64,000 nt of DNA from Bacteroidales bacterium (GTDB taxonomy: Bacteria; Bacteroidota; Bacteroidia; Bacteroidales; GCA-2711565), in contig JANQLW010000060.1 in the NCBI GenBank assembly GCA_028280405.1, forward strand, positions 1 through 64,000. Direction: 5' to 3'. Every line of letters starts with the position of its first letter. Positions within the stretch are counted from its first letter, which is position 1. Both the position numbers and the translations under genes were made by a program. Below, piece by piece: positions 8,640-46,273 of the stretch. The notes under the pieces were generated by a model. That model saw only the letters and a list, made by a program, of their open reading frames with translations. It was not told where the DNA came from and made no database searches.

Positions 8640-9845
8640 TTATTGTAAACTCATAAATACATATGCATGAGATTTAGATTTAGCAGTTAGCTTACTTAAT
8701 TTCCCCCAGATATCCTGAAATTCTTTCATGAGTTCGTTATATTCTTTATCTTCTTTCATGGCTTTCATCAGACCTTCTCTGTCATCTTTAAATTTCTCAG
8801 AAAGTTTTTTATAAAGCTCATCCATTTTCGGGCGCATTACCTCCATTTTTGCTTCTAAATCTTTTTTCTCTTTTTTCTGTGCATCTGTATGTTTAGGAGC
8901 TGGTAAGTTCACAGAACTTCTGCTTCCAACAATAAGATCCAGTTTACCATCGCCATTACAATCAGCAACAGCAACCTGCGTAGTTCTGCAAGTTCCGCCA
9001 TATTCACTATTTACAAAATCTTCGGCTTTAAGTAAGCATACTGCTTTATCAAAAGCAGGCTTTTTCTTACTACCGATATTTTTATAAAAGTAAACTCCGC
9101 CATCTTTGTCACCACCAATAATATCCCATAATCCGTCACCGTCCCAATCTACAAATGCATCAGCATAATGTTTTTTGATCACATGGATATTTTCTGTTCC
9201 GAAAACAGGATTCTTTTTAGTACCTTCATTAATACGTAACCATGCACCGTTGGTACCGCTAATGATTAAATCCAGATCTCCATCTTCATCCCAATCATGA
9301 GCCTTAACAAAGTCTCCTTTGTCACCACTTTTATTACGATCACCGATATATGTATTTTTTTCGAAATCATAATACATTCCTAAATGAATATCTGTGCCTG
9401 ATTTATCTTTGAGTACGACAGCTTTTTTGAATTTTCCACCATCTTGCCCCCAAAGAATATACGTTAATCCGGCATAACCTTCACCTAATAAATCAATGTT
9501 ACCATCTGCATTTAGGTCCACAAACTGTGGGCCAACTGCAGTACATCACCAATTACGGATTTCAGCTTTTTCACCTTCTGCCATGATGTATTCGAAACCA
9601 TCATACTTAGGAGCTGCATTTGTTCCAGTATTTTTATAAAATTTGAAATGCCCCTTGAAAGTTCCAACAATCAGGTCATTTTTACCATCCTGATCCAAGT
9701 CATAAATCGTTGGTCCTGCATAAGGGATCTTGTCGTCAATTGGTTCACCACCGGCTTTTACCAACATGGGTGTACCCATTTTCTGTGCAAAGGAAAAAGC
9801 TACAAGGCCTAATACCAATGCCATTGTCATCATTTGTTTTTTCAT
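8640..9845 (-). CDS. Secreted FG-GAP/VCBS propeller selenoprotein (copy A)
   Basis: Read through one in-frame UGA (9546-9548), this encodes 401 aa with Sec at residue 100. Signal peptide 1-20 (MKKQMMTMALVLGLVAFSFA), then VCBS/FG-GAP repeats with Ca-binding loops such as DLDQDGKNDLIVG, DLNADGNIDLLG, DWDEDGDLDLI and DCNGDGKLDLIVG, then a charged helical stretch (about 315-385) and a final HAYVFMSLQ strand. The Sec lies in NW-U-C-TAVGPQFVDL, a vicinal Sec-Cys pair between two repeats. Both halves share the frame, and the stretch after UGA starts without any start codon or gap. A hairpin fitting a bacterial SECIS follows 15 nt after UGA. Copy B, directly upstream, is a tandem duplicate of the same length with Sec at the same position. 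Function unknown; an envelope redox role is inferred. Confidence 0.85.
9518..9548 (-). promoter_or_regulatory. UGA-Sec codon plus SECIS hairpin (copy A)
   Basis: UGA at 9546-9548, 15 nt of spacer, then CCACA-GUU-UGUGG (9518-9530), extended by GG/CC beyond a C-A mismatch. The first loop base is G and the loop lies 21 nt from the UGA, within the known bacterial SECIS range. Confidence 0.8.
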
Positions 9846-9910
9846 CTGTTTTAAGAATTAATAATTTTTAAATAAAAGGATAATACCAAATACGGGCATT
9901 CAAATATACA

Positions 9911-9950
9911 GAAATAACTAAAGGAAGCATAAACTTCCTTTAGTTATTTC
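9911..9950 (-). terminator. 17-bp hairpin between propeller selenoprotein copies B and A
   Basis: A perfect stem (9911-9927 with 9934-9950) and 6-nt loop lie right after the stop of copy B. The U-run is weak. It probably ends or attenuates transcription before copy A. Confidence 0.6.
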
Positions 9951-9957
9951 ATTCTTC

Positions 9958-11163
9958 TTATTGAACACTCATAAATACATATGCATGCCTATCCATTTGA
10001 GGCATAAGCTTGCGATGTTTTTCAGCTATTGCCATATATTCTTTTATTAAGTTCTGGTAATCTTTATCAGCATCCAAAGCTTTCATCATCGCTTCACGAT
10101 CATCACTATATTTTTTTTGATATTTTTCTGCTGAAGCCCTTAATTCAGGCATTAAAACTTCCATTTTCTTGCTTAAAGAATTTCTTTCTTTAACCTGAGC
10201 TTCCGTAAATTTCTGTTCTGGTTTATTAACAGTATTATTATTACCGATTACCAAATCAAGTTTACCGTCACCATTGCAATCTGCAACAGCAACCTGAGTT
10301 AATCCGCTGTTTCCTCCATATTCTTTATTAACAAATTCAGAGGCTAACAATAAACATTCTTTTGGTGCAAATACAGGTTGGCCTGGTTTCCCAATATTTT
10401 TAGAAAAATAAACACCACCTTTTTTGCTTCCACCAATAATATCCCATAAACCATCACCATCCCAGTCGCAGAAAGCATCTGCATAATGGCCTTCAAGAAC
10501 TTTAATATTTAAAGTACCAAAGGAAGAATTGGTTTTAGTCCCTTCATTAATTCGAAGATATGCTCCTTTAGTTCCACTGATAATCAGGTCAAGGTCACCA
10601 TCATTATCCCAGTCGTGGGCTTTAACGAAATCACCTTTTTCACCCCACTTATCATCAAGGCCGATATAAGTATTCTTTTTAAAATCATAATAAGCACCTG
10701 CATGAATATCTGTACCTGATTTATCTTTAAGTACAACTGCTTCTGCAAACTTACCACCAGCTTGTCCCCAAAGTACATAAGTTAAGCCTGAATATCCTTC
10801 ACCAATAATATCAATATTGCCATCAGCATTTAAGTCCACAAACTGTGGTCCAACGGCAGTACATCACCAATTACGGATTTCAGCATCTTTACCTCCGGCT
10901 TGTATATACTCAAAGCCATCGTATTTAGGATTAGAGGAAGTCCCGGTATTCTTATAAAACTTAAATTTACCCTTGAAAGTTCCCACGATCAAATCATCTT
11001 TACCATCTTTATCCAAATCGTAGATTGTTGGCCCAGCATAAGGGATCTTGTCATCAATTGGCTTTCCCGCTGATTTTATCAACACAGGTGAACCCATTTT
11101 TTGAGCAAAGGAAAAAGCTACAAAGCCTAATACCAATGCCATTGTCATCATCTGTTTTTTCAT
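9958..11163 (-). CDS. Secreted FG-GAP/VCBS propeller selenoprotein (copy B)
   Basis: Tandem paralogue of copy A: 401 aa when UGA (10864-10866) is read as Sec100. The start is the ATG of MKKQMMTMALVLGFVAFSFA; the open frame extends 20 codons upstream, but those residues (rich in R/T/K and before a complete signal peptide) are not credible. The motif is NW-U-C-TAVGPQFVDL. Ca-binding repeat loops recur (DLDKDGKDDLIVG, DWDNDGDLDLI, DCNGDGKLDLVIG), followed by a helical segment and HAYVFMSVQ at the end. The two copies differ most in the helical tail, and the Sec region is nearly identical. It lies downstream of the thioredoxin pair on the same strand, in the SusCD locus 1 region. Confidence 0.85.
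10836..10866 (-). promoter_or_regulatory. UGA-Sec codon plus SECIS hairpin (copy B)
   Basis: UGA at 10864-10866, then 15 nt, then CCACA-GUU-UGUGG at 10836-10848. Stem core and spacing are identical to the other four propeller genes. Confidence 0.8.
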
Positions 11164-11308
11164 TGTAAAAGTTTTAGTTATTGTAAAAGAACGATTGGGT
11201 AGTAAAATAATATGGCGCATCAAATATATTAGAATAATTCTAAATAATCAAGTTTTTAGACTTAATCACTTTAATTTTCAACATAGTACAATTCTTATGA
11301 CAGAAAAA

Positions 11309-11340
11309 AAGAAAAAAACCCTTATTCAAATCGAATAAGG
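11309..11340 (-). terminator. Intrinsic terminator after the plug-like protein gene
   Basis: On the minus strand CCTTATTC pairs with GAATAAGG, followed by GTTTTTTTC. It is about 20 nt past the stop at 11361. Confidence 0.8.
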
Positions 11341-11360
11341 ATTTTAAACGATTTACAAAT

Positions 11361-11939
11361 TTATTTTTTTGTTGTCACAACTATGGCAGGTTTTCCATAT
11401 TTTGCAATATCTCCACTTTCATTTAGAACTTCAACTTTTTTTATCATACTAGGAGAAATATTTAACATCGTTGCAGGCAGAACTTCAAATTCATCTAAAA
11501 TTAGTTTTGGGGATTCCATTTTAGGGCCTCGTATATCGAAAAACTTTACTTTAAATTGATCATTGCTAATTTCAACTACACCTGCATATAAACCATTCAT
11601 TAAATCTTCAAAGCTGGTATATTGAGCATAATCAATTCCTGACTTTTTCAGTTTAATATCCAAGAAGTCAGATTTGTTCTTAATCTTAATGGTTTTAGTT
11701 GAATAATCTTCTGCAGAAATTTTAATCTTATCTTTTTTAGCACATTTAACGGAAAAAGTTCCATCCGCATTGACATGAAAATACTTCTTGGTACTTTTTA
11801 CATAAACCTTAGCTTTTATAATTTCTCCTTTAAGGTTAGTTACTTTTCCTTTCACTTCTACATCTTGAGCAAAAAGAGCTGAGCATAAGAATGTCAATAT
11901 TAAAGTAATAGTTTGTGAAAGCCTGATTATTTTTTTCAT
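11361..11939 (-). CDS. Secreted protein with carboxypeptidase-regulatory-like and TonB-plug-like domains
   Basis: A small exported protein of 192 aa. Signal peptide 1-24 (ends LCSALFAQ), then a carboxypeptidase-regulatory/CNA-B-like beta domain (DVEVKGKVTNLKGEIIKAKVYV...), then a region resembling the end of a TonB plug (MIKKVEVLNESGDIAKYGKPAIVVTTKK). These are the first two modules of SusC-type receptors without the barrel. Free-standing proteins of this type are common in Bacteroidota and their role is unclear; they may be periplasmic partners of SusC. Degenerate copies of the plug tail are seen just upstream (11985-12092) and at 23609-23719, so this small gene seems to multiply and decay in the region. 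Confidence 0.7.
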   Translation of the reverse strand: MKKIIRLSQTITLILTFLCSALFAQDVEVKGKVTNLKGEIIKAKVYVKSTKKYFHVNADGTFSVKCAKKDKIKISAEDYSTKTIKIKNKSDFLDIKLKKSGIDYAQYTSFEDLMNGLYAGVVEISNDQFKVKFFDIRGPKMESPKLILDEFEVLPATMLNISPSMIKKVEVLNESGDIAKYGKPAIVVTTKK

Positions 11940-11984
11940 AATGTATATTAGTTTTTAAATTTAATTCTATACAAAGGGAATAGT

Positions 11985-12092
11985 CTATAATTTCGTTTGA
12001 ATTTTAATTACCACATTATTTCTGGAATAGCTGGATATTTCGTTTGGATCGGTCAAAACTTCGACATTTTTTATATAATAACACAACTGCAT
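11985..12092 (-). pseudogene. Remnant of a plug-like protein C terminus
   Basis: A 35-codon frame ending in IKNVEVLTDPNEISSYSR then NNVVIKIQTKL aligns by eye with the end of the neighbouring plug-like protein (KKVEVLNESGDIAKYGKPAIVVTTKK). It has no signal peptide or N-terminal domain and no promoter, so it is best seen as a leftover of a tandem copy. It is too short to be certain. Confidence 0.5.
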
Positions 12093-12423: not shown

Positions 12424-13698
12424 TTACCGCATACGCATCGCTGGTATACCTCTCGTTTTCTTGTCTTTCCCGGAAACTTTGTTTTCTTCTCTTAACTTCT
12501 TATCATATTGAGATTGTTTACCTTCAAGGTATTTAATAAACTCCAATTCTGTTTTAAGTCTGGAAACCACATCTCTGTAATCATCACCTAAACGTTCATA
12601 TAATTTGATTTTAGTTTCCCAATACATCTTAAAGTAAAACATTCTGAAAAAGTCATTCAATTCATTGGCTTTATCAATCCAACTAATTGCTTTTTTCAGT
12701 ACCTCAACATCAGTAGTATTGCTACTCGCAATTGGCATATACCATCGATAGTAAGTCTGGAAATCATCAAGGTGTTTATAATACCCGGAAGCTACTAAGC
12801 TTTCAATTTTAGCAATATATGCTTTCCAATCTTTTTTAAGTTTTAGGATATTTAAACGCGTACTTTCAATTACACGGTTTTTAGATTCAAATTTTCTTTC
12901 ATCCATTAATTGAATTAATCGTTGAAATTCCATTTCATCAAAATCTTTTCCATCCTTGACTGCATATGCTAATTTATTGGCATAATTAAAATATTTACCA
13001 TGAAGCATCATCTCGACCGCTTGAGGAGTAAATTTTTCTTCAAATTTTACACGGTTAGCATAGATATACTCAATAATAGGAGAAAACGGAGTTTGAACCT
13101 GTCTTGCAATCATTTCCCAATTCTCTTTCTCTAAATATTTTTCTTTAGGAAGAATGGAAAGATAGTGTTTTGCAACATCTTTAGCCCTTGCATCATATGT
13201 TTTATTAAGATGATTGAAGTATTCTTTTACAATTGCTAAATTGTTCTTATTCTTTTTATATTTCTTTTCCAGGTCAGTGTTTATATTTCCACCTGCCAAA
13301 GCATTTTCACCTTCAGCAATTAACTGATCGGCATTACGTCCACCAACAATTTTATGAACAACATTACCTTTATGATCGACCCATAATAATGTTGGGAAAG
13401 CACCCACATGAAATTTATCTTTTAATTCAATTCCTTCACCTTTTTCCATATCAACTTTGTAATTGATAAAGCTTTTGTTAAAAAAGTCACCGACTTTTTT
13501 CAACGGAAATATATTTTTTTCCATTTGCTTACAAGGACCACACCACTCGGTATAGCAATCTATGAAAATAAGTTTTTTTGCTTTCTTTGCTTCTTTGGTA
13601 ACATCTGCCCAGGAACCTTTGCTAAATTTTATTCCATCCTGTGCATTTGCAAATATCATCATGAATGATAATAATGCAAGAATTGAGAATTTCTTCAT
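12424..13698 (-). CDS. Secreted thioredoxin-like protein, Cys form (WCGPC)
   Basis: An exported thiol-disulfide protein of 424 aa. Signal peptide 1-19 (ends MIFANA), thioredoxin fold about 25-140 with DCYTEWCGPCKQ near residue 50 and the cis-proline region VGAFPTLLW, then about 280 residues of charged helical, TPR-like sequence. It is a paralogue of the Sec form encoded directly upstream. In the active site this copy has TGG-TGT where the upstream copy has TGG-TGA, so the pair is a natural Cys/Sec contrast. Thioredoxin-fold proteins with such helical tails are common in Bacteroidota envelopes, but the target is unknown. It shares the strand with the Sec gene, 39 nt apart. Confidence 0.88.
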   Translation of the reverse strand: MKKFSILALLSFMMIFANAQDGIKFSKGSWADVTKEAKKAKKLIFIDCYTEWCGPCKQMEKNIFPLKKVGDFFNKSFINYKVDMEKGEGIELKDKFHVGAFPTLLWVDHKGNVVHKIVGGRNADQLIAEGENALAGGNINTDLEKKYKKNKNNLAIVKEYFNHLNKTYDARAKDVAKHYLSILPKEKYLEKENWEMIARQVQTPFSPIIEYIYANRVKFEEKFTPQAVEMMLHGKYFNYANKLAYAVKDGKDFDEMEFQRLIQLMDERKFESKNRVIESTRLNILKLKKDWKAYIAKIESLVASGYYKHLDDFQTYYRWYMPIASSNTTDVEVLKKAISWIDKANELNDFFRMFYFKMYWETKIKLYERLGDDYRDVVSRLKTELEFIKYLEGKQSQYDKKLREENKVSGKDKKTRGIPAMRMR

Positions 13699-13737: not shown

Positions 13738-14934
13738 TCAGTTCAATACTTCCTTGTCTTTTAACTGTTTTTTTGCAGCTCCTGGACGCATAGCAGGCGT
13801 TGGCATCATCCCATAAGGATTCCATGCTTTACCTTCCATCAGATCCTTGCATTTATTTTTTAATTCTTCAGAAGTAGTGTTCGCAATCACCATTTCAAAC
13901 CATTTGTTTGAAACAGCAACAACTTCTTTATCAAAATGTTTTCGACGGATAAGGCACGACCATTCATACATCTGGTAAGTTCCCAGTACAGATCTATCAT
14001 TTTTTACATAATTTTCTACAATTTCAATGCACTTTTTCATATCCGTACCAGCCAAAGTAAACTGAATATGTGTTAGTAAAAGATCTTTTTGCTCTATATT
14101 AAATTTATTCAATGAGTTTTCAAATTTTTTGTACGCCTCTTCATTAATAGCTCTGCTTCTGGTTTGTTTATTCCAAACCGCTACATTAAAGAGATCTTTT
14201 TTATAAAGATTCATCACTTTTTCATTTACAGCATCTTTCCCCACTGACTTAATATACTGTTCACGATTAGCTAGAAAATACTCTGCTTCATCCTTATAAA
14301 CATTTGTAAAATACCTATCAAAATATTGCCAATTGGTTTTATGAGTCCATTTTGACTTATCTTGTTCATTTAAAACTTTAGAAACAACAGTTTCCATTAA
14401 TTCAGTTTTACGTGCTTTTTTCAATGCAAACAGATACTCACTTACAAAAGTATCCTCTCTGTTCCCTTTATTAAATTGATCTGTAAGACTTCCTATGCCT
14501 TTCCCACTCAATGCAGTTTTAGCAGCAGCAATTAGGTGTTCAGGTTTACCTCCTCCAAGTTTACGATGAATCTCTTCACCTTCTTCATCTAAATAAATTA
14601 AGGTCGGGAATGCAGTAATACCCCATTTTTTTGAGAGTTCAATACCTTCGCCTTTTTCCATATCAATTTTTAAGTTGATAAAGTTTGCATTATAATAATC
14701 TGCTACCGATTTCTGTGTAAATATATCTCTAACTAGAGTTTTACATGGGCCTCACCATACGGTATAGCAATCTACAAAAATTTTCTTACCTTCCTTCTTG
14801 GCCATTTTCACAGCTTCCTTGAAAGAAACATCTTTAAAATCAATATTGTATTTTGGGGATTCCTGTGCTTTTATGCTGATACCCATAAATAATATCAACA
14901 CAAGTATTACTATTTTTCTTCCAGTTCCAATCAT
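13738..14934 (-). CDS. Secreted thioredoxin-like selenoprotein (W-U-GPC), copy 1
   Basis: Read through UGA at 14752-14754 this gives 398 aa with Sec61 in DCYTVW-U-GPCKTLV. Signal peptide 1-23 (ends GISIKA), thioredoxin fold about 30-140 (FPTLIYLDEEGEE holds the cis-proline), then a helical tail. The residues before and after the UGA both align with the Cys paralogue downstream, where a TGT Cys codon stands at this site, so reading UGA as Sec restores a full fold. A small hairpin lies 13 nt after the UGA. It follows the SusC, SusD and metzincin-like genes on the same strand. Sec instead of the attacking Cys lowers the pKa and should speed reduction of disulfides or peroxides. Substrate unknown. 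Confidence 0.9.
14727..14754 (-). promoter_or_regulatory. UGA-Sec codon plus candidate SECIS (thioredoxin copy 1)
   Basis: UGA at 14752-14754, 13 nt, then CUCU-AGUU-AGAG (14727-14738). The loop has G as second base and starts 18 nt after the UGA. The stem is short, so confidence is lower than for the propeller genes. Confidence 0.6.
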
Positions 14935-23725: not shown

Positions 23726-25627
23726 TTACATGCGATTTTTTATTTCAACCGGAATATCTACCACTTTTTCAACAGGAGGCAAGCAACCGCTTTTATCACA
23801 AGTTTGATAATATATTTTTACATTAAAGATATATTTACCAGGTTTAACTTTCCATCCCGTTTTAAAAGATTGTTTGTAAGTCAAGCCTTTACCCATATAT
23901 ACTTCCGCTCCGTCTTTAATCTTTAATTGAGGAAATTCCATCTCACCAAAAGTCTTGATTCCTTCAGGAATTCCTTCAAAGCTTACTCTAGTGATAATAT
24001 TACCTTTATCTCGGTTTGCTTTGGTATCGGCGTATAAATACCAACCTTCCTGCATATCGAAAATAACAGATAAAGTAAAGAATGATTTTACATCCCCTTT
24101 CAGATTCACTTTATAAGCAACCGGACCGGATTTTTCACCACCCAGATCCTTAGAACTTATTTTATAATATTCAGGAAGCACAAAGTCTTTAGCCTTAATG
24201 CCGGTTTTTGCAATTGCTTTGTTTTTATTTTTCTTACCATACTGAACATAGACATATCCCCGATGACGTTGAGTTAATTCTTTTTTCTCTTCCTCGGTCA
24301 GATCACGGGTATATTTTTCATCAATCTTAATATTAGAATATTTTTTAGCCATATCCTCATACATTTTGCGATCTTTTTTATGCTTTTCATCTGCGGTTTC
24401 ATAAGTCACATAACGACCCGGATCTTTGCCGGCCATTTCAATTCCAAGCTCAGCTACCCAACCCCAGGCAAGGCGATCACTAACTTCATAACCCATTTGA
24501 GTAGGGATACTTAAACCCCATAACAGATCCATTACACCATCCATATTATAATCTACAACCGTTACGAATGGACAACTACCGGGAAATACTTTCTGTCCAT
24601 TTTCAGCTTCAAACAAAGCTTTTCGCTTTTCAAAACGTAATCCCTTATCAGTCATCACTCCACGGAAAAATTCCACCGGATTCTGTCCTTTTTTTGAATA
24701 TGAACTTGTAACAAATAAATCCAAAATACCATCCTGATCCCAGTCAACGGGTTGAATATAAGATTTAAAGTCCCCTGCAGGGCATGGGAAACCATAACTT
24801 AAGAATTGCTTTATTTGTTTTTTACTCAGCTCATAAATTGTTAACATATTTCCATCAATATCCAGTAATGGAGTTCTCTTACCAAACTCAGGTTTGTTTT
24901 TCGTACCCACATTTAGAGAAACACGAAGCCCGCCGGAGCCACCTACAAAGAGATCAATCAAACCATCTCCATTAAAATCGCCAAATCCGGCTGAAGAAAA
25001 ATTCCAGTAATCATTTGATCTTGTATCTGTAAATGGAAGGCTTTGAATTCCTCCTCTTTTACAATATTTATCATCGTATTGTTTGACGGGAACACCCGGT
25101 TTAAATCCACTCCCGGTGTTTTCCCACATAGTAATTACACCCGGGTTATATTGACCGGTAAGCATATCTTTTAATCCATCTCCGGTTAAATCCACAAACT
25201 GTGGATGAACACCAATACATCACCATTGATAAGCTGTGATCAAATTACCATCAGTATCCTTAGCATAATTGTATTCTCCACTATATTTTGGATTCTTATT
25301 ACTTCCTTCATTTAAATAAATTTTTATGTATGACCCTACTTCTCCTGTTTCAAATTCACCTACCAAAAGGTCTCTTTTTCCATCATTATTCCAGTCGAAT
25401 AAAGTTGGATAAGCCAGGCCATGTTTGCCAATACGGATCTCCAGTTTTTTACCATTAAGCATTTGTGGTTGTCCTAATACCGGAGCTCCTGGAATATTTG
25501 TATTTATAATTTTAGGAAACTTAGGTAAGTATTTTGTCTTTGCATTTGGGTCATCCTTAATCTTATCTGCAGCAATTGCAAACAAGCCAAAACTTAAGGC
25601 AACTAATATAAATATGAATTTTCTCAT
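23726..25627 (-). CDS. Propeller selenoprotein fused to a DsbD-N-like redox domain (copy C)
   Basis: With UGA (25220-25222) read as Sec136 the product has 633 aa. Signal peptide 1-19 (ends GLFAIAA), then FG-GAP/VCBS repeats with DWNNDGKRDLLVGEFE and DLTGDGLKDMLTG flanking AYQW-U-CIGVHPQFVDL, further repeats to about residue 450 (DFNGDGLIDLFVGGSGG, DWDQDGILDLFV, DYNMDGVMDLLWG), an RHRGYVYV strand, a linker, and a C-terminal domain (about 490-633) ending in YYQTCDKSGCLPP. That motif (C-x4-C before LPP) is the signature of the DsbD N-terminal/disulfide corrector domain. So a Sec-Cys pair and a Cys pair are joined in one secreted protein. It has its own ECF-like promoter. Close in layout to copy D. 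Confidence 0.87.
25192..25222 (-). promoter_or_regulatory. UGA-Sec codon plus SECIS hairpin (copy C)
   Basis: UGA at 25220-25222, 15 nt, then CCACA-GUU-UGUGG (25192-25204). Here flanking AU and AU extend the stem to 7 bp. The loop begins with G. Confidence 0.85.
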
Positions 25628-29783: not shown

Positions 29784-31664
29784 CTAATACATACTTATTC
29801 TTGTCTTTAATTTTATAGTTTCTTCTGTTGGTGGTAAACAACCATTTTCATCACATGTTTGGTAAAACACTTTCACTTCAATAATTTGTTCACCTGAAGG
29901 TGGCTTCACAGATCTATCCTTAGGATAATTAAGTCTAAATTTTTGTGCGAATCTTACATTATTTCCTTTATAAACCTGATAGGTTCCTTTCATTTGAGGT
30001 GTTGGTTCGATAGGCTTACCTATTTTCTCGAAGCCTTTAGGGAAAACATATTCAACCTTTGTTACCATTTGTCCCATGGCAATATTCCCTTCAGTATTTG
30101 CATATCCATACCAGCCTTTACGGAAGTTCATTATCACCTCAACTTCAAATTCTTCTCTAAATCTTAATCTCTCAGGAGCCTTAACACTAAATTGAACAGG
30201 GCTATCACCTCCCCCGGTTTGAGAAACTTCATTCTTAATTACTTTAGGAATATTCTTGGGTTTAGCTTTAACTGTTTTAGCAACTGCTTTCTCTTTATTC
30301 TTTTTTCCCAGCATCACATAAACATAGCCTCTATGGCGAAGTGTAAGGTATTTCGAATCCTCCAAACCACCTAAATAATAATTTTTCATGTGTGGCTGTT
30401 TTTTGATTTGTTTCTTAAGTGCTTCAATTCCACCTTTAACATATTTTATAGCACGACCTGCATCTTTACCTGGTTGTTGAATTTTAAGATCATGATTATA
30501 ATTCCATGAAACATAATCATCAATTTCAAATCCATTTACCGTTGGAATAGAAATACCAAAGATCAGGTCATTAACTCCATCATTATTATAATCGGCCACT
30601 TTAATATTTGGCGCGCAACCGGGAAAAGTTTTGCTCATATCTTCTGTTGTAAAAAGAGCTTTAGAAGGCTCAAATCGTAAACCATTCTGCGTTTTTACTC
30701 CACGGAAAAATTCTACAGGATTAGTTCCTTTATCTCCATAAAGATGGGTTATTAATAAATCCAATACTCCATCCTGATCCCAATCAATTGGGTTTAGGAA
30801 TGATTTACCTACTCCTGAATAATTTGGATAACGGCCATCTTTAGCCAGTTCAGCAATTTTTTCTTTACTTGGCTTAATCACAGCTAAAGGATCTCCATCA
30901 ACACCATATAAAAATGTTCGTTTTCCAAACTTTGGATTCTCCTTTGTACCAATATTCAAAGCAACTCTAAATGAAGTAAACCCTCCAAGGAAAAGATCTA
31001 ATAATCCATCTCCGTTATAATCAGCAAAAGAAGCAGAAGAAAAGCACCAATAGGCAAATGCTGAAGTATTCCATGGTTCAACACCCTGAGCAGCATCTTT
31101 ACCTTTTATATATTCTTCTTGCTCAACAAATACTTTTGGAAGAAATCCATCTTTAGCTCCTCTCCACCAGGAAATTAATCCGGGATGATATTGTCCGCTA
31201 AGCATATCAACATAACCGTCCTGGTCTAAATCCACAAACTGTGGATGAATACCGATGCATCACCATTGATGAGTGGTGATGGTATCTCCTTTCGTATCTA
31301 AAGCATAAAAATATTCACCTGAGAATTTAGGTTTTCTGTTGCTGCCTTCATTCAAATAAACTTTAATATTTGATCCTGTATCACCTGATTCAAATTCACC
31401 CAGCAAAAGGTCTTTTTTCCCGTCTTTATTCCAATCATAGAATGCCGGATAAGCCAAACCATGCTTATCTACACGAATTTCCTGTTTTTTACCATTCACG
31501 TGAAAGGGCTGTCCCAGAACTGGAGCACCTGGAATATTTGTATTTACAATTTTAGGAAACTTAGGAAAATTCTTTGAACGGACTTTATCAGTCGCTGAAC
31601 TTTGTGCCATTAACCCCAAATTCAGGAATAAGAGGGTTATAAATATTAAAATTATTTTTTTCAT
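29784..31664 (-). CDS. Propeller selenoprotein fused to a DsbD-N-like redox domain (copy D)
   Basis: 626 aa when UGA (31260-31262) is read as Sec135. Signal peptide 1-20 (ends LGLMAQ), repeats with DWNKDGKKDLLLGEFE before and DLDQDGYVDMLSGQY after THQW-U-CIGIHPQFVDL, more Ca-binding repeats (DYNGDGLLDLFLGG, DWDQDGVLDLLI, DYNNDGVNDLIFG), an RHRGYVYVMLGKKN strand near residue 455, then a DsbD-N-like domain (about 490-626) with FYQTCDENGCLPP. It is clearly orthologous in layout to copy C but more diverged than A is from B, so the duplication is older. It follows the DUF4369/NHL lipoprotein and the second Sec-thioredoxin on the same strand. Confidence 0.87.
31232..31262 (-). promoter_or_regulatory. 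UGA-Sec codon plus SECIS hairpin (copy D)
   Basis: UGA at 31260-31262, 15 nt, then CCACA-GUU-UGUGG (31232-31244), stem extended to 7 bp by AU pairs. Confidence 0.85.
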
Positions 31665-33609: not shown

Positions 33610-34803
33610 TCACTTAGGCAACTCTCCTTTTTGAATTGTTTTTACCAATTCTATATTGGCAGCATATTTTCTTTTACCTTCAACTTCTTTTATTAGTTTA
33701 TCGCCATATTTGTTGGCTAACTCCTGTGCTTGTTTTTTATCACCACAGAACCAAAGAATTTTAACGTAACTAGATAAAGAACTTATATCCTTGTCAATTC
33801 CATCTTTTTTGATGTATGGTAAACATTTCTTCGCCAAACCCTCAGGTATTTTGTTTAATTGGCGAACTGCCATAGGAACCATAAAATTCATCATAGGAGG
33901 TTCTTCATTATATTTCTCTTTAGCCTCAAATAATTTGATTAAGTAATTAAGATTATCTCCTTTAAAGCGCAACTGATCGATATCAGCATATTCTTTTATT
34001 TGAGCGAAGTAAGTTGGGAAACTAAAAGATACTCCTCTTTCAGCAGCTTCTTTTTCTTCCGGTGTATGCGCCATCATAATTAAGGTCCTGACCAGTTGTT
34101 TCTCCATTTTAGGATCATTCAATAAAGTCATCATCGAACGATTTTCAATGATGAAATCCATAAACTTATTTTTCCATCTTGCCTGGCCTATGATAAACTT
34201 TTGATTCTCTTCAGAGAATAATTTCTTTTCAGGATAACTCATCGCCAATTCCCAGTTTAACTCTTCGGTTGCATAATACTTGATGGCATTCATACGAGCC
34301 AAAATGTAATCTTTCAGGAACTGGGTTTTACGATTTCCTTTGCGATATTGGCGTTGGTACCATTCCCAGGTTTTCTTTTCTTTACCTATGGCAATACGCC
34401 CGATACGGGCAAACTTATCCGGTTCCATGGCACCAAAATGATTGGTTTCCCATTTTACACTTCCGTCAGGATTCAGGAATAATAAGGTAGGATAGCCTTT
34501 TACTTTATAGTGTTTTGCCAATGCCGTATTTGTCTCATTCAATTCTGAATCAAAACCGAAATTGATAAAATATTTGTTGAAAACTTTTCCAACTTCCTTA
34601 GAAGGAAACACGTCCTTCTTCAAACCTTTACAAGGGCCTCACCATGTAGTATATACATAGAAAAATATTTGTTTGTTCTCTTTTTTAGCTAATGCTTTTG
34701 CTTCTTCAAAGCTGCCTTCGAACCACTTGATGCCTTGAGCCATGGTTACATTTGTAATAAAAAGAAAGCTTAAAGCAAAAAATACAATTTTTAGTTTTTT
34801 CAT
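33610..34803 (-). CDS. Secreted thioredoxin-like selenoprotein (W-U-GPC), copy 2
   Basis: 397 aa when UGA (34639-34641) is read as Sec55. ATG at 34803 gives the signal peptide MKKLKIVFFALSFLFITNVT-MA, then AQGIKWFEGSFEEAKALAKKE, then YVYTTW-U-GPCKGLK, cis-proline KGYPTLLFL, then a helical tail to residue 397. Without readthrough the downstream half would have no export signal. A 7-bp hairpin follows the UGA. It resembles the locus-1 Sec and Cys thioredoxins in layout. Its position after SusD mirrors locus 1, so the SusCD plus Sec-thioredoxin arrangement occurs twice. Confidence 0.9.
34600..34641 (-). promoter_or_regulatory. UGA-Sec codon plus SECIS hairpin (thioredoxin copy 2)
   Basis: UGA at 34639-34641, 19 nt, then AGAAGGA-CGUGUU-UCCUUCU (34600-34619). 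Seven perfect pairs, loop G at the second position, 28 nt from the UGA: within the bacterial SECIS pattern. Confidence 0.75.
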
Positions 34804-36528: not shown

Positions 36529-39500
36529 TTAAAATTCGAATTTAAGACCCAAAACAAAAGAAGCAGGAACTTTCACACCAGGACGGTATGCCTGTGGGAA
36601 GCTTCCTCCAAATGTAATTTCACGACCTGAGAAAGGAACTGATTCAGGGTCAATATCAGCATCGTTAGCAGCCCAGATCAAACCCAGATTACGAGCCTGG
36701 AACATCAGACTAGCACGTTTGAAACCAATTTTACTAACAAAGTTTTTGTCTAATTCATACCATAGGGTAATATCTTTTAGACGGATATGGGCTGCACTGT
36801 GTAGTGCATAATCCGACATGGTAAATATATATCTACGGTCATAGCTGTTAAACTCAGCGGAATTACGTGCTTGTGCAGGGATATCTGTTGTTGCTTCATC
36901 ACCTGCTTGTTTCCATGCATTAGCTACATCTTTTTGTTTTGTTTTCACCCAATCAATTGATGATGCAGCCTGTGGATATTTCACTTCCAGATTTTCCTGG
37001 AACACATGTCCAAATTTGAACGTAAAAAATACATTTAATGTAAAATTCTTATACTTAAGAATATTATTTAAACCACCAAATACTGGTGCAATAAAAGGTT
37101 TAGTTGCAATCATCTCGTCTTGAGAGACATTAGCAAATTCAGGATCAGTGTAAGTTATTACGCTACCATCTCTTAATCGAATTTGAGGATCACCGTTATC
37201 ATTCAAACCGGCCCAATCAAAACGTACCTGAGAACTTACATCTTCTCCTATAAGTTTAGTTCTTCCACTTTGTACGTCATAATAATAACTGGTTGCGGAG
37301 GTTTCATCACGGTCACCATACTTAAGAACTTTATTTTTGTTATATGAGAAGTTCAGGTCAGCAGTCCATTTAAAATCGCTTGATTTAATAACATCTGCTT
37401 TTATACTTAACTCAACCCCTTTATTTGAAATTTCACCTTCGTTTACATAAACACTTCCAAGGCCATAAGATGGATTGGTATTTTGATTTACCATCAGATT
37501 TCTTGATTGTTTACTATAAACATCAAAGCTTGCAGTTACCCGGTTGAAGATTGTGAAATCAAGGCCGAAGTTAAGGGTTGTTGTTTCTTCGGGTGCAAGG
37601 TTTGGATTACCCCAACTATCAATAGATGCATCCGGTTTACCGGTATAGGTATCAGAAGAACCATATTTAATGGTTGTTGCTGTAGTTTGTCCTCTTCTAA
37701 GATTACCGTTTTTACCAAGAGATGCTCTAAATTTTAATGCGTCTACCCATTTAACATTAAAGAAATCTTCTTTTGCAATATTCCATGATCCGCTGATTGC
37801 CCAGTAAATATTTTTTGATAATCTTTTATTGATACCAAAAGCAGTAGCCTGGTCAACCTTTGCTGAACCTTCAATATTATATTTTGCCTTATAACTATAA
37901 CCAAGGTTTGAGAATGCAGAAACACTTCTACTTAGAATTTCAGGTATAAATGAGTTGTTTCCATGATATGCACCTCCAAGTATAGATTCATTAATAGAAC
38001 CATAAGGAGCAAATTGATTATGGTCAAATAATGCATCATAAGTGCCTGTACGGTCATCCCATCCAACAAATGTTTGCTGGTTGAAAGTATAAGTATTAGA
38101 AGAAGCTTCCATACCGGCTACACCACTTACTACATGATTTTCAGCAATAGTTTTGAATAAATTCAAACTTCCACGGGCAACATGATTTGTATTAACTGTA
38201 GATTGTTTTTCTAAAACACCTCCATAAGGAACAGCTCTTTCTACTCCTGATCCAGCCTCATTATATGCTGTAATATATGAGTTATTTCCTCTTCTAATTT
38301 CATATAGGTCAAGGCCTTTGTTGTTTTCAATATTCGATTCAATTCTATTATATTGATATTTCAAATCTACATTTAGCTAATCTGTTATTTTGTAATTCAT
38401 ACCTCCGGCGATTCGGATATTGAAAGATGAGGTGTTGTTATCACGTAATTTGTAATCAGTTATAGGGCTGAATCCAATCGGATCAAATCCTCTTTCCAAA
38501 AATTCAGTTTCACGATCACCATACTGCCATCTAATATCAAGCGGATTACCCTGATCATCTACTAATTGATCATACATATTTATAATAGGAAGGCGAGAGC
38601 CTGTATATAAAGTGGCAACACCAATTCCATTATCATTATTATTACTGGTAACAAGCGAAACATCTACCTGAGCTTTCCATTTATCGGTAAGATTAAAATC
38701 ATTTGTTAATGAAACATTAAAACGTTCAAAATCATCACCCATATTTGGATCTTTTTCCTGAGTATGAGATACCGTAAGGTTATAATTTGAATAATTGGAA
38801 CCACCACGAATACTTACAGTATTTTGAGAGTTAAAACCACCTCTCAATAAATGATCTTCAAATTGTTTTAAAACATTTCTTTGTCCAAGATTTGTAAGTA
38901 ACTGATCACGTTCAGTATCAGTAATACTACCCTCGTAAAACTGAGCCCAAATATTATCATAAGCATCTACTGTAGCATATTTATATCCCAGATTTTCCTT
39001 TACAACCTGAGTCCATCCAAGTACCGGATCATAAACCCAGCTTAAAGCAACATAATTGACAACATTATATGCAGTATTTTGGTATGTCGGCATATAATCC
39101 ATAGCTGCATTTTTCAAAGCGATAATATCAGCTGAAGAAGCTAAACCAAAGCCACTTAGATCCTGTTTAGTTCCGAAAGTCCAGTTGGAAGAAACAGCTA
39201 CAGTTGGTTTTCCTGCTTTACCACGTTTTGTTGTAACAACGATTACACCATTAGAAGCGCGCAAACCCCAAAGTGCAGTAGCAGATGCATCTTTCAAAAC
39301 GTCAATTGATTCGATAGTAGCCTGATCAATATCATTAAACGGACCTTCATAAGGGAAACCGTCAACAACGATCAATGGTTGTCTGTTTAATGAATTTCTG
39401 TCCTGCATTGCTGCATCAAAATTATCACCTTCTTCATCAAAGGTACTGATACCACGAAGGATCAATTCGATTTTTTCTTGTCCACCGTCTCTGGTAATTG

Positions 39501-40281
39501 TATTGATATTCAAACCTGTAGAAAGACCTTCCATACGATCGGAAAGATCAACAGTAACCTGTCTTTCAACATCAATGGCGGCAACTTTTGTTGCTGATGA
39601 AGAAGAACGCGTTTTACTTGTTTTGGTATATCCGGTTACTACAACCTCTTCTAAAGAAGAAGCAGATTCTTTCATTATAACATTCAAAACACTTACACCT
39701 TTGACAGGAATGATTTGAGTTTCAAAACCTATATAAGAAATTTTAAGTTTTGCATTTTGATTGGATACTTCGATAGTAAATTCACCATTTGCATTCGATG
39801 TTACACCATTAAATGTTCCTTCTTCTAAAATCGTAGCACCCGGAAGAGGAACACCATCTTTATCTTTAATGGTTCCTTTTACTTCTACAGCTTCTAATTC
39901 AGCTTCATTTGCTTCCGCTAATTCTTCTTCAGCCCGTTCAAAAAAGATAACCTGATTGTCCATCACGGTATAAGAAAAACCTTGAGGAACAACATATTTA
40001 TCAAGGATTTCCTCAACTGTAGATTCTTTTACATTTATATTCACCGGAGGTAAATTATCAAATAAGTCGGAGCGATAAAGGAAAGTATAATCACACTTAG
40101 CTTTCATTTGCTCTAACATTTGTTCAATGCTTACTTGTTTAACATCAAGGTTAAATTTACTACTCTGAGCATTAACACTTGCTGAAACGTGCATTGTACT
40201 GATAATAAGAATTAAGATCGTAATCTTCATAACTAGCAGTACCATTTTTCCTCTATTAAAGAGGTCTCGTTTTTTTTTCAT
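36529..40281 (-). pseudogene. SusC-family TonB-dependent transporter interrupted by one in-frame UAG
   Basis: The reading frame runs 1250 codons with one stop, UAG at 38377-38379 (codon 635), and no frameshift. Upstream: signal, STN domain (about 40-120, SKFNLDVKQVSIEQMLEQM), carboxypeptidase-like domain, plug (SIDVLKDASATALWGLRASNGVIVVTTK) and the first barrel strands. Downstream: the rest of the barrel to FVLGLKFEF. The UAG stands in YKITD-stop-LNVDLKYQY, where SusC proteins usually have a Trp, so TGG to TAG is a likely single change. SusD downstream and FecR/ECF upstream look intact. Recent loss, phase-like variation, sequencing error or suppression are all possible. Confidence 0.85.
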
Positions 40282-41546: not shown

Positions 41547-41572
41547 AGTTTTTTTAAAGTACTTTCACTTAT

Positions 41573-42833: not shown

Positions 42834-44783
42834 CTAATGTTTAATAATCTTATGAAAATTAGGATTTAGAAAACGTTCGTCACCTTTTCGCAAAAGGAAT
42901 TTTTCTCCTTCAAATATTTCAAACAATTGAATGGCAACCTTTCTATTTCCATCAATTAAATCTCTGAACTGAGAAACAGTAATACCCCCTTTATTCTCAG
43001 ATAAAAACTTAGAGACAGTCTTTCTGGCCCTATCTACCATTACGTGATAGAATGAAAGATCTCCATGACGGATAATTTTTTTCTGACTACCAAGAAATTT
43101 AATGATATGCTTAAATGTTTTTTCTTCTATTCCTTCATAAGAAGCTTCTTTCGCCATTTTTTCTATATCAAATCCACTCATCCCATTTTCAAGAAGTAAA
43201 GCTTCAACCAGCTTGATTTGTTTCTTTTCCACATCACTAAGTTCAGTTTTCTGGTTTGGTAATTTCCAATTATTTGCAATACGTGATAGTTGTTTTTCCT
43301 CTTCCAGTTCTTCAATAACGAAACCAAGTATTTCGTCATTTGTAGCAGCATCAGATGAATTAAGCGAATTTTCCGCAAAAAGAGCTAATTTCTTTTTCGA
43401 TACGCCAGTTACATTCAGCGGATTATTTTTATGATATTTTTCCAGATTTTGAAGTAATATATGTTTTATACGGGAAATCTGCTTTTTGTCAAAAATAAAT
43501 TTTACACCCTGGCGTGATTTCAAATAGCGAATACTTTCCGATTGATCAATAAGGACAAGTACTTTTTCTTCTTTCATTTGTAAAGCATTCACAAAATAAT
43601 CAACAGAGGTTAAATGAATCCTTTCATTTACTTTGAATTCAATATAAGCCAAATTATCTTCAGCATATTTCTCTAATGCCTCAACCAGTTTTTCTGATTT
43701 TTTTTTATGATTTAAAGGAAGCGGATCAATTACTACTCCTCCACCAATAGTGGTATCTGAAGATGTGTTTCTTAAGATAAAGTGTTCTCCTTTGACAAAG
43801 TACCAATCTTCTTTTAAATAGATTTGAGCCACACGTTTTTCTTTGGATCCCTCAAAATCCTTATCCAGCAATTTAACCTGAACAGACATTTTATTGGTTC
43901 CAATTAACAAAATTGCATCAAAGCGCTTTGCATTATCTTTTATAGCTTCAAGCAAAGTAAGTTTAACATCTATTCTGGAACTTTTAGGTAAATCTGTTTT
44001 AGTTAAAATATCACCTAATTGAATGTCTCTTTTTTTAATTCCTGTTATATTAATTGCAACTCTGGAACCTTGTTGGGCAGTATCAACGGTTTTTCCATGA
44101 CGTTGAATTTGACGAATTCGCACTTCATTATCATTGGGTAAAAGTTTTATAACATCATTGGTACCTATAGCATCAGCTAAAATAGTACCTGTAGCGACTG
44201 CTCCGAATCCACTCACATTAAAAACCCGATCTACATACATTCTGAAAAAGTCTTGTTTTTCTTTCAGAATAAGGTCATAATCTTCATCTTGCAAATACTC
44301 TTTTAACTCTTTTATCCCATCACCTCTTAAAGAAGAAACCTGAAAGATGGGCTTATCCTCTAAAAAAGTACCTTTTACCAATTCTGAAACTTCCTCCGTA
44401 CAAAGTTCCAGCATATCATCATCAACCATATCTTTTTTATTAATGACGACAATACCGTTTTTAATGCCAAGTAAGCTACATATTTTCAAGTGTTCAATGG
44501 TTTGAGGCATTACACCGTCATTAGCAGCTACAATAAGCATTACAAAATCGATTCCCGACACTCCGGATATCATATTACTAATAAAACGATGATGGCCGGG
44601 AACATCGACAAAAGCAAGGTATTTATCATCTTTCAATGGCAAATAGGCAAACCCAAGATTGATTGTAATTCCACGTTTTTTTTCTTCGGGATGCGTATCG
44701 CAATCCATATTTGTGAGTGCTTTAATCAAACTTGTTTTCCCGTGGTCAATATGTCCTGCCGTACCGATTATAAAATGTTCCAT
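42834..44783 (-). CDS. selB: Selenocysteine-specific elongation factor SelB
   Basis: A GTPase of 649 aa that brings Sec-tRNA to the ribosome at UGA codons followed by a SECIS. The start is the ATG of [23 protein letters not shown]; the frame opens 21 codons earlier, but the EF-Tu-like G1 motif (AGHIDHGKT) begins naturally here. G3 is DVPGHHRF and G4 NKKDM. Domains II-III follow, then the SelB winged-helix repeats from about residue 370 to the end, which read the SECIS hairpin. A TTTG-N20-TAATTTCG promoter-like pair lies upstream. It is close to, but not in an operon with, selA and tRNA-Sec. Confirms that the organism inserts Sec. Confidence 0.97.
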
Positions 44784-45154
44784 GCTTAGTTTCCAGTAAT
44801 AAATATATGTATTTGCGAAATTAGGGGATAATTTGGGAATTGGCAAATAAGGGGGATGTAAATTGGTGTATTTGTAAATTAGTAAATTGGTGGATGGGTA
44901 AATTGGATATTGTTATGATCCATTGACAGATAGTTTTGTTTGGTGGGAAATATCCTAAACATAGGATACTTACTAGTTATTTTATATAAAAATAAAGAAA
45001 GGGCTATTTTAAAAGTAATCATAATTTTAATTATAGTCAGGGCGTGAATTGTTAATAGATTAAGTGTATGAGTTTGATCTTTTGAAGAATCTTTTAAATA
45101 TATTCACACCCTGACTTTTGAGACTGCCTATTCCTTAATTTAAATAATCTAAAT
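44784..45154. other. Intergenic gap between propeller copy E and selB
   Basis: No gene seen. It holds AAATTGGTGTATTTG-like simple repeats (44860-44915) and one copy of the GTCAGGGCGTGAATT inverted element (45036-45115). Confidence 0.6.
45036..45115. repeat. GTCAGGGCGTGAATT inverted element, copy 1
   Basis: GTCAGGGCGTGAATTGTTAAT at the left and ATTCACACCCTGAC at the right are inverted and nearly perfect; the interior includes TTTTGAAGAAT. A second copy with the same interior lies at 50748-50827. Size and ends suggest a non-autonomous palindromic element. Confidence 0.8.
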
Positions 45155-46273
45155 TTATTTGCCTAGAAGTAAATAAATGTGTCCGTAATTTTTCATTGAT
45201 TTAAAAAATTTCATCATAGCACGAGAATCCCTTTTCCCGTTCTCATCTTTAAATTGAGCCAAAAAGTCTTTTTTAAGATTATTATAATCTTTAAAATATT
45301 CGCCTTCTCTATATGCAATACTTGCACCTACCAATAGATCTGTTTTTCCATCATTATTCCAATCAGTAGCACATATCCAATGCGCTCGTCCGGGCACATA
45401 TTTTTTCCCCTTCTTATTTTTAACAATCGCAACAGGAGCGGCAAACTTTTCATTACCCATTCCTTTAAAATAACATAGTCCTACATCCTTAGAGTCAGGG
45501 TTATTACCATCTGTTGAAACGATATCCAATACTCCATCATTATCCCAATCCATAACAACAATAGTCGGATGAGTGGTTTTTAAAGGTTCTCCTTCTGTTG
45601 TATATAACAATTCTCTATTTCCAAATTTGAAATTCTCTTTGGTTCCTACATTTCTATTAAACCAAATATGGTCAAAGCCATAAGTAAAGAGGTCTAAGTC
45701 TCCATCATTATCAAAATCAACAAAATGGGGAGTAGCCTTATATTGTGGTGGAACCCCCTTCAATTTTTCCTGACCTTCTTTTAATTTAAGTGGCCCCTCT
45801 TCAATAATAACTCCTTTTTTAAATCCTTTTGAACTGCCTTCAAACCAGGTAATATGATTTGGATAATATTTACCTGAAACCAAATCCATATATCCATCAT
45901 TATTTAAATCCACAAACTGTGGTGTAAAACCAATGCATCAGCCAGTTTCAACGAAAAGAGGATTTCCATCTATATCTTTTCCATAAAAGAAATCATCATT
46001 AAATTTTGGTTTACTATCCGATCCTATATTTAGATAAACTCTGAATTTAGCTTTGGCTTCAAACTCTCCAACAATTAAATCTTTTTTCCCATCTTTATTC
46101 CAATCATAAACAGCAGGATGAGCATAACCATATGCTTCAATTTTTAAGGGACCTGACTCACCTTTTATAATTTGTGGTTTACCTAATTTGTTAATCTTCT
46201 TTTTTGCAGCATAAGTAGTTATACTAATGCAAAACAAGGCTAATAAAAGCAATACATTTGTTTTTTTCATCAT
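45155..46273 (-). CDS. Short FG-GAP/VCBS propeller selenoprotein (copy E)
   Basis: 372 aa with UGA (45938-45940) read as Sec112. Signal peptide 1-22 (ends ISITTYA), repeats DWNKDGKKDLIVGEFE and DLNNDGYMDLVSGKY around VETG-U-CIGFTPQFVDL, then DFDNDGDLDLFT, DWDNDGVLDIVS and DWNNDGKTDLLVG, and a final GHIYLLLGK strand. It lacks the DsbD-like tail of C and D. The residue before Sec is Gly rather than Trp, showing that only U-C and PQFVDL are fixed. It lies between selB and the selenium metabolism operon, the closest client to the machinery. Confidence 0.86.
45910..45940 (-). promoter_or_regulatory. UGA-Sec codon plus SECIS hairpin (copy E)
   Basis: UGA at 45938-45940, 15 nt, then CCACA-GUU-UGUGG (45910-45922). 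The 13-nt core is unchanged although the flanking codons differ from the other four genes. Confidence 0.82.

What the first reader, a model, noticed from the sequence alone, without database searches (positions are those of the whole stretch)
8640..46273. Five FG-GAP/VCBS propeller proteins with a Sec-Cys pair: an apparently undescribed selenoprotein family
Five secreted propeller genes are each split by one in-frame UGA at the same place: x-U-C-(I/T)-(G/A)-x-x-PQFVDL, at 9546, 10864, 25220, 31260 and 45938. In every case the downstream part continues in frame, lacks its own signal, and has no start codon near the UGA. The nucleotides after UGA are conserved as a hairpin. selA, selB and tRNA-Sec lie in the same window. 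Decay would not hit five genes at one codon. I know of no published FG-GAP/VCBS selenoprotein.
Basis: partly seen in the sequence, partly recalled or inferred. Interest (0 to 1): 0.95.

Follow-up and report, generated by a model that had tools for sequence, protein, structure and literature searches.

The report
Selenocysteine-bearing FG-GAP propeller protein family
Five genes here carry a UGA codon at the same place, which is likely read as the selenium amino acid selenocysteine instead of as a stop, and relatives with the same UGA occur in six other named bacterial phyla, so this appears to be a widespread selenoprotein family that gene databases often list as cut-off proteins.

Summary
All five propeller genes have one in-frame UGA at the same alignment column (U-C-x-x-x-x-P-Q). 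The same genome has 21 such sites, every one UGA. Two more UGA genes lie in the window: thioredoxin-like proteins with W-U-G-P-C. tRNA-Sec, selA, selB, a seleno-type YedE and (elsewhere) a UGA-bearing selD are present. Among the best 66 database hits, 59 of the 60 that span the site have Cys-Cys. A hairpin (CCACA-GUU-UGUGG) starts 15 nt after the UGA; it fits the published bacterial SECIS model, shows compensatory changes across phyla, is held by codon choice (Val GTG 20/20 against 11% in the window's genes), and its four outer pairs are complete in only 3 of 13 Cys-Cys genes. UGA versions occur in six further named phyla; of 119 Planctomycetota genomes, 29 have a match and all 35 matches carry one TGA. 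In a search with one planctomycete member, 118 of the 120 listed proteins begin just after the UGA. A review table of 119 prokaryotic selenoprotein families and NCBIfam show no such family. Selenium insertion is near-certain by sequence but untested. The redox role of the Sec-Cys pair is inferred; the substrate is unknown.

The parts
8640..9845 (-). FG-GAP propeller, 401 codons, read through UGA
   Evidence: FG-GAP_3 64.7 bits, U-C site in alignment
9546..9548 (-). in-frame UGA (predicted Sec)
9518..9530 (-). SECIS-like hairpin CCACA-GTT-TGTGG
9958..11163 (-). FG-GAP propeller, 401 codons, read through UGA
10864..10866 (-). in-frame UGA (predicted Sec)
10836..10848 (-). SECIS-like hairpin
23726..25627 (-). 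FG-GAP propeller with C-terminal DsbD_N domain, 633 codons, read through UGA
   Evidence: FG-GAP_3 69 bits, DsbD_N 26.5 bits (cut-off 25)
25220..25222 (-). in-frame UGA (predicted Sec)
25192..25204 (-). SECIS-like hairpin
23756..24079 (-). DsbD_N domain with C-x4-C (YYQTCDKSGCLPP)
   Evidence: (residues 517-624), sequence
29784..31664 (-). FG-GAP propeller with C-terminal DsbD_N domain, 626 codons, read through UGA
   Evidence: DsbD_N 29.4 bits (cut-off 25)
31260..31262 (-). in-frame UGA (predicted Sec)
31232..31244 (-). SECIS-like hairpin
29808..30158 (-). DsbD_N domain with C-x4-C (FYQTCDENGCLPP)
   Evidence: residues 503-619
45155..46273 (-). FG-GAP propeller, 372 codons, read through UGA; predicted five-bladed
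   Evidence: (pLDDT 89.8)
45938..45940 (-). in-frame UGA (predicted Sec)
45910..45922 (-). SECIS-like hairpin
13738..14934 (-). thioredoxin-like protein with W-U-G-P-C (start 14934 or 14886)
14752..14754 (-). in-frame UGA of the thioredoxin-like gene
33610..34803 (-). thioredoxin-like protein with W-U-G-P-C
34639..34641 (-). in-frame UGA of the thioredoxin-like gene
12424..13698 (-). thioredoxin-like protein, Cys form (W-C-G-P-C)
42834..44846 (-). selB
   Evidence: TIGR00475 368.7 bits, cut-off 242.25
54285..55694 (-). selA
   Evidence: TIGR00474 538.9 bits, cut-off 267.9
55723..55815 (-). tRNA-Sec (anticodon TCA)
   Evidence: RF01852 60.2 bits, cut-off 47
50856..51920 (-). YedE family putative selenium transporter
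   Evidence: TIGR04112 485.9 bits, cut-off 200
49205..50377 (-). cysteine desulfurase family protein, possible selenium donor
   Evidence: TIGR01977 437.8 bits, cut-off 377

Best explanation
Each of the five genes has one in-frame UGA followed by a conserved RNA hairpin, and this UGA is predicted to be read as selenocysteine, which would give a likely exported FG-GAP propeller, predicted to be five-bladed, whose neighbouring selenocysteine and cysteine likely form a redox site. How it would work: (1) SelA charges tRNA-Sec with selenium from selenophosphate; SelB carries it to the ribosome and recognises the 13-nt hairpin whose loop begins with G-U about 20 nt after the UGA (genes and hairpin shown; the process is inferred from the known bacterial pathway). 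(2) The full protein is exported (inferred from the N-terminal hydrophobic stretch). (3) The vicinal Sec-Cys pair cycles between selenol/thiol and a selenenylsulfide while reducing a substrate outside the cytoplasm (inferred). (4) In Bacteroidota the pair is re-reduced by the DsbD-N domain fused to or encoded next to the propeller and by Sec- or Cys-thioredoxins of the same cluster (inferred from fusion and gene order). I put about 0.96 on Sec at this codon, about 0.6 on a thiol/selenol reductase role, and leave the substrate open.
For: 21 of 21 family sites in the genome are UGA. Sec machinery is complete: tRNA-Sec, selA, selB, seleno-YedE in the window and selD with its own TGA elsewhere in the genome. 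Cys-Cys at the site in 59 of 60 site-spanning proteins among the best 66 hits. UGA-Cys in 17 loci, six named phyla; in 119 Planctomycetota genomes 29 have a match and 35 of 35 matches hold one TGA (the centre genome and one more were known before). Codons: CAG 21/21 (36% in the window's genes), GTG 20/20 (11%), CCA 19/21 (28%), while the next Asp, Leu and Gly codons vary. Hairpin covariation on 33 sites: 90.8% paired, 12 cells with changes on both sides, 0 of 500 shuffles as high; slid controls at most 49.5% paired. In 30 of 30 planctomycete loci fetched later the four outer pairs form at the preset offset (26, 4; L215 repeats L113); control offsets in the 26 gave 9 of 156. The same four pairs are complete in 19 of 21 own sites, 20 of 22 others at the preset offsets (the two WOR-3 sites L111 and L114 form the stem one base later) and 3 of 13 Cys-Cys sites. 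Published bSECIS criteria: met in 56 of 69 UGA sites, 3 of 13 Cys-Cys sites. The tree needs 8 Sec/Cys changes. dN/dS downstream of the UGA is 0.08-0.42 in 7 of 7 chosen pairs. Redox link: DsbD_N in two window genes and in 19 of the best 66 hits, with the C-x4-C motif in 18 of those 19; Sec-thioredoxins in the cluster and beside propellers on contig C88; an all-Cys locus of similar gene order in Seonamhaeicola, with a separate DsbD_N gene (36.1 bits, cut-off 25); a thioredoxin-like DsbH protein just upstream of the UGA propeller in L126 (242 bits).
Against: No protein or RNA data exist here. 3 of 17 UGA-locus genomes lack selA above cut-off and 5 of 17 lack tRNA-Sec at E 1e-8; L111, whose record is titled a chromosome, and L122 lack both, L111 having only a partial selA match (70 bits). 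2 of 8 Cys-locus genomes have selA and 3 of 8 a tRNA-Sec. 13 of 69 UGA sites miss the -7.5 kcal/mol threshold, 8 of them in this genome. In the codon test one unrelated position also stands out (Ala GCC 9 of 13 six codons before the UGA, p 3e-5), and its p-values treat related genes as independent. Outside Bacteroidota no general electron donor appears: of nine neighbouring proteins from six UGA loci scanned, one (L126) is thioredoxin-like. Distant relatives have Gly-Cys at the site, which a two-residue redox centre does not explain. One database relative has Trp-Cys.
Confidence: 0.82

Rival explanations
1. The UGA is decoded as selenocysteine, but the Sec-Cys pair binds a soft metal or a cofactor instead of cycling between thiol and disulfide, or serves as a rigid vicinal bridge as recalled (not from a call) for methanol dehydrogenase.
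For: Adjacent Cys-Cys pairs also occur twice in the DUF4369 protein encoded next to one propeller; the second Cys stays when the first position is Gly in many distant relatives; the protein carries FG-GAP repeats, recalled to bind metal ions.
Against: Repeated Sec/Cys exchange (8 changes) and fusion to a DsbD-N domain with its Cys pair fit reversible redox chemistry better.
Confidence: 0.25
2. Each gene is really two cistrons: the first ends at UGA and the second starts at the GTG or ATG about 9-24 nt later.
For: Gene callers place starts there: 118 of 120 listed database proteins begin just after the site, and the downstream window ORFs begin with GTG.
Against: The residues between UGA and that start are conserved as protein and the UGA aligns with Cys in intact homologues; the GTG lies inside the hairpin and its codon choice follows base pairing; the second half would lack an export signal.
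Confidence: 0.02
3. The organism reads UGA as a sense codon throughout (code 4 or 25).
For: None beyond the open frames.
Against: 4 of 41 window genes examined end in TGA, among them both Sec-thioredoxin genes, and only 7 sense-strand TGAs with 40 open codons on each side were found; a tRNA-Sec and SelB are present.
Confidence: 0.01
4. The genes are decaying pseudogenes or carry assembly errors.
For: One copy on contig C74 also has a TAG and is short.
Against: 21 of 21 sites at one codon, one TGA in 35 of 35 matches in other genomes, dN/dS well under 1 downstream of the UGA, RNA covariation.
Confidence: 0.01

Closest known systems
Bacterial selenoproteins with a bSECIS element (general kind; PMC13188914 sections 5-7)
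   Same: In-frame UGA, hairpin 16-37 nt downstream with G in the first two loop positions, Sec/Cys homologue pairs, sel genes in the genome.
   Different: No listed family of the 119 in Table 1 is named FG-GAP, VCBS or propeller; the scaffold is not a thioredoxin fold.
Sec-thioredoxins and thiol:disulfide interchange proteins (UxxC)
   Same: Extracytoplasmic thiol chemistry likely; two UxxC genes lie in the same cluster.
   Different: The propeller's pair is adjacent (U-C), not UxxC.
DsbD N-terminal domain (PF11412)
   Same: Two window propellers end in this domain, above Pfam's cut-off.
   Different: Here it is fused to a propeller, without the DsbD membrane and thioredoxin parts (domain order of DsbD recalled).
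FG-GAP/VCBS propellers (integrin alpha, CRTAC1)
   Same: PF13517 and PF01839 repeats; weak sequence matches to integrin repeats.
TsoB (NF045694) rhodanese/DsbD-like selenoprotein
   Same: Its C-terminal part matches the two thioredoxin-like UGA genes weakly (51.0 and 49.7 bits; cut-off 805).
   Different: Far below cut-off; no propeller.

Membership tests
Bacterial selenoprotein | UGA aligned with Cys of homologues in Sec-less organisms | tested here: met
   (59 of 60); 6 of 8 Cys-Cys genomes tested lack selA above cut-off
Bacterial selenoprotein | bSECIS: hairpin, loop 3-9 nt, G in first two loop positions, 16-37 nt from UGA, MFE at most -7.5 | tested here: met
   56 of 69 UGA sites meet all (13 of 21 in this genome), 65 of 69 at -4 kcal/mol; criteria read
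Bacterial selenoprotein | tRNA-Sec, SelA, SelB, SelD in the genome | tested here: met
   for this genome; elsewhere selA 14 of 17, tRNA-Sec 12 of 17
Bacterial selenoprotein | UGA-bearing homologues in other organisms | tested here: met
Bacterial selenoprotein | selenium found in the protein | not testable with these tools
   needs 75Se or mass spectrometry
FG-GAP / VCBS propeller (PF13517) | Pfam score above gathering cut-off | tested here: met
   5 of 5
FG-GAP / VCBS propeller (PF13517) | propeller fold | tested here: met
   (predicted model of one member)
Thiol/selenol oxidoreductase | known redox partner or fold | tested here: inconclusive
   DsbD_N fusion and Trx neighbours in Bacteroidota; in other phyla a thioredoxin-like neighbour in one of six UGA loci scanned
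UGA-reassigned genetic code | UGA not used as stop | tested here: not met
   4 of 41 genes end in TGA
Curated NCBIfam selenoprotein families | score above a selenoprotein model's cut-off | tested here: not met
   nine propellers scanned (four of the window's five); no selenoprotein model among the matches; above cut-off only an XAC2610 domain (L112) and a type IX secretion tail (L106)

The most novel reading that the evidence does not exclude
A major overlooked class of extracytoplasmic selenoenzyme: propeller proteins with a vicinal Sec-Cys catalytic pair, spread over at least seven bacterial phyla, present in about a quarter of sampled Planctomycetota and expanded to some twenty copies in one Bacteroidota genome, working with Sec-thioredoxins and DsbD-type reductants beside SusC/SusD uptake systems, and stored in databases as proteins cut off at their N-terminus.
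Probability: 0.6. Interest if true: 0.95.

Novelty: new variant of a known kind. Interest (0 to 1): 0.9.

Why it matters
Selenoproteins are missed because gene callers treat UGA as stop. Here the loss looks systematic: for one planctomycete member, 118 of the 120 listed database proteins start just after the Sec codon. If confirmed, the family would be among the more common bacterial selenoproteins, would put selenium into a propeller instead of the thioredoxin fold, and would document heavy Sec use in what I infer to be a Bacteroidota genome (a 2006 survey, PMC1794560, detected the trait in none of that phylum). Its hairpin, with strong covariation inside a protein-coding stretch, gives a natural SECIS series for studying SelB recognition. 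The Sec/Cys exchanges allow a direct test of what selenium adds.

Tried and rejected
Considered and rejected: reassigned code, decay, two cistrons, assembly error (see rivals). Tried without profit: searching 60 relatives: the five same-genus genomes (three of them under 90% complete) have no family member, and the order-level matches have no TGA and look like generic FG-GAP proteins. A sample of 395 genomes of the window's own phylum found only the window's genome at E 1e-40, but only about four candidates per genome were scored, so rarity in that phylum is not established. tRNA-Sec presence alone does not separate UGA from Cys-Cys genomes significantly (12 of 17 against 3 of 8, p 0.19), while selA does (14 of 17 against 2 of 8, p 0.0099). 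Foldseek gave no close solved structure; matches by sequence to solved structures cover only FG-GAP repeats. Neighbours outside Bacteroidota gave no common partner. Rows left out before counts: L103 and L137 (UGA-Gly) from all UGA sets; the second L108 site, L127 and L153 from the Cys set; one short own copy (L048) from the tree. Only 25 genomes of the 80 fetched loci were tested for sel genes (the 17 UGA-Cys and 8 Cys-Cys ones). The covariation alignment A4 holds 22 sites from other genomes and 11 of the 21 own sites; six of its rows are paralogues of one genome (L106). The first hairpin script recovered 26 of 30 new loci by its motif filter; the other four were read. Five of the 35 matches were not fetched, so there the TGA's place was not checked. 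For the two Sec-thioredoxin genes a short hairpin can be drawn by eye after the UGA, but it was not tested. A groundwater metagenome study that the 2026 review cites as reporting unvalidated new candidates is not held, so prior mention there cannot be excluded.
Full report
OBSERVATION. They align with the UGA in one column, followed by an invariant Cys and PQFVDL. A scan of both strands for TGA codons with 40 or more open codons on each side returned nine sites: the five, two more on the coding strand in thioredoxin-like genes (W-U-G-P-C, at 14752 and 34639), and two on the plus strand, antisense to minus-strand ORFs.

MACHINERY. tRNA-Sec, selA, selB, a YedE of the selenium-transporter type and a cysteine desulfurase family protein are in the window. 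selD lies on another contig and itself carries one TGA, and SelD is a listed selenoprotein in PMC13188914. UGA also serves as stop: 4 of 41 window genes examined end in it, including both Sec-thioredoxin genes.

THE FAMILY IN THIS GENOME. A profile of the five gives 25 matches. 21 of them carry TGA, and reading them gives 21 distinct U-C sites on 12 contigs, one in a short copy that also has a TAG. Of the other four matches, two are downstream pieces of one of these genes by position and two are short fragments without the site. Five genomes of the same genus have neither the family nor a tRNA-Sec above cut-off; three of them are under 90% complete.

HOMOLOGUES. With UGA read as Cys, the best 66 database hits include 60 that span the site: 59 have Cys-Cys, one Ala-Cys; six start after it (the window's own fragment and five metagenome proteins). 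Named ones include Flavivirga, Pedobacter, Flagellimonas and Carboxylicivirga. Ranks 67-120 are more distant, many of them planctomycete VCBS proteins with Gly-Cys. In 119 Planctomycetota genomes, at most 13 candidates scored in each, 29 had a match at E 1e-30 and all 35 matches held exactly one TGA; for the 30 fetched loci the TGA is at the U-C site. A protein search with one planctomycete member listed 120 proteins (of 2455 under the E-value limit), of which 118 begin just after the site, one has Trp-Cys and one Cys-Cys: databases hold these genes as truncated products.

SEL GENES ELSEWHERE. Of the 17 UGA-locus genomes 14 have selA above cut-off and 12 a tRNA-Sec at E 1e-8; of 8 Cys-Cys genomes 2 and 3. 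The selA contrast has Fisher p 0.0099, the tRNA contrast 0.19. Two UGA genomes (L111, L122) lack both.

RNA SIGNAL. After each of the five UGA codons the mRNA holds CCACA-GUU-UGUGG. In the 21 own sites Gln is CAG 21/21 (36% in the window's genes), Val GTG 20/20 (11%), Pro CCA 19/21 (28%), Phe TTT 20/20 (74%), whereas the adjacent Asp, Leu, Asn and Gly codons vary; one position upstream (Ala GCC 9 of 13) also departs from usage. Across phyla the stem changes on both sides: CCGC/GCGG, CCAUG/CAUGG, CCUC/GAGG, UCGCA/UGCGA. On 33 sequences 90.8% of cells are paired, 12 cells have changes on both sides, and none of 500 shuffles reached the percentage, the cell count or the covariation score; sliding the partner drops pairing to at most 49.5%. 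Some of the 12 cells come from the six paralogues of one genome. In planctomycete loci fetched after the offset was fixed, 30 of 30 form the four outer pairs there (26, 4; L215 repeats L113); control offsets in the 26 gave 9 of 156. The same four pairs are complete in 19 of 21 own sites, 20 of 22 other UGA sites and 3 of 13 Cys-Cys sites; the two others that miss, L111 and L114, form the stem one base later. The published bSECIS criteria are met in 56 of 69 UGA sites and 3 of 13 Cys-Cys sites. Cys-Cys genes with the same PQFVD peptide (L093, L099, L101) break the stem by synonymous bases.

EVOLUTION. A tree of 141 members (68 UGA, 73 Cys-Cys; quick method) needs 8 changes of state, and the well-supported branches alone force 8, against a mean of 47 for shuffled labels. 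The window's genome has UGA members in both main halves of the tree: 13 form one clade and one long-branch row lies elsewhere in the UGA-rich half, while six sit in the half made up mostly of Cys-Cys proteins. Both parts of the genes look to be under purifying selection: downstream dN/dS 0.08-0.42 in 7 of 7 chosen pairs, upstream 0.07-0.16 in the 6 computable, though dS is over 1 in several pairs.

MECHANISM. Sec insertion by the usual bacterial route is the committed reading. For function I propose a vicinal selenol-thiol redox centre outside the cytoplasm. Support: two window members end in a DsbD-N domain, as do 19 of the best 66 hits, with the C-x4-C motif found in 18 of those 19; Sec-thioredoxins stand in both ECF-FecR-SusC-SusD modules of the window and beside propellers on contig C88; a Seonamhaeicola genome without selA or tRNA-Sec has SusD, propeller-DsbD-N, thioredoxin-like genes, ABC transporter, GldG-like gene, a second propeller and a separate DsbD_N gene, with Cys at the propeller and thioredoxin sites. 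In other phyla the link is thin: of nine neighbouring proteins from six UGA loci, only the DsbH-type thioredoxin-like protein upstream in L126 fits. One member of a six-copy tandem array carries a type IX secretion tail (35.5 bits, cut-off 23), which fits a place on the cell surface there.

NOVELTY. Library searches for selenoprotein or selenocysteine with FG-GAP, VCBS or propeller gave nothing relevant (listings only, 15 of 86). I read sections 5, 6, 10 and parts 1-2 of 3 of section 7 of PMC13188914, whose Table 1 is said to hold 119 families: none that I saw fits. NCBIfam has no selenoprotein model for it (nine propellers scanned). Subscription papers, preprints and one cited groundwater study were not seen, so 'undescribed' means not found in these sources.

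Noticed in passing
window 36529-40281 (-): The second SusC-like gene is one frame of about 1250 codons broken by a single in-frame TAG at codon 635; likely a damaged gene or an assembly error.
   Followed up: partly
window 31809-33506 (-): DUF4369 protein beside a Sec-propeller has two vicinal Cys-Cys pairs (RPCCSIL, HSCCNP) of its own.
   Followed up: no
window 46505-48970 (-): Fer4_5 protein, extracellular solute-binding protein and a NifB-like radical SAM protein (275.9 bits, cut-off 343.65) sit between selB and selA; a link to selenium is unknown.
   Followed up: no
L103:2976 and L137:535: Related propellers with UGA followed by Gly instead of Cys, still with a hairpin.
   Followed up: partly
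L106: Six Sec-propeller genes in tandem in one unnamed bacterium; the one scanned carries a type IX secretion sorting tail.
   Followed up: partly
L126:7642-9534: Thioredoxin-like DsbH-type (DUF255) protein, 242 bits, directly upstream of a UGA propeller in an Aegiribacteria genome.
   Followed up: partly
G000:C51:89201-90118: selD of this genome carries one in-frame TGA, so it is likely a selenoprotein itself.
   Followed up: no
G000:C88:101114-102220, C31:5550-5909, C85:3186-3608: Further thioredoxin-like genes with one TGA; the C85 one also has a TAA.
   Followed up: no
P0065-P0120: Distant planctomycete VCBS proteins keep the second Cys but often have Gly at the Sec position.
   Followed up: no
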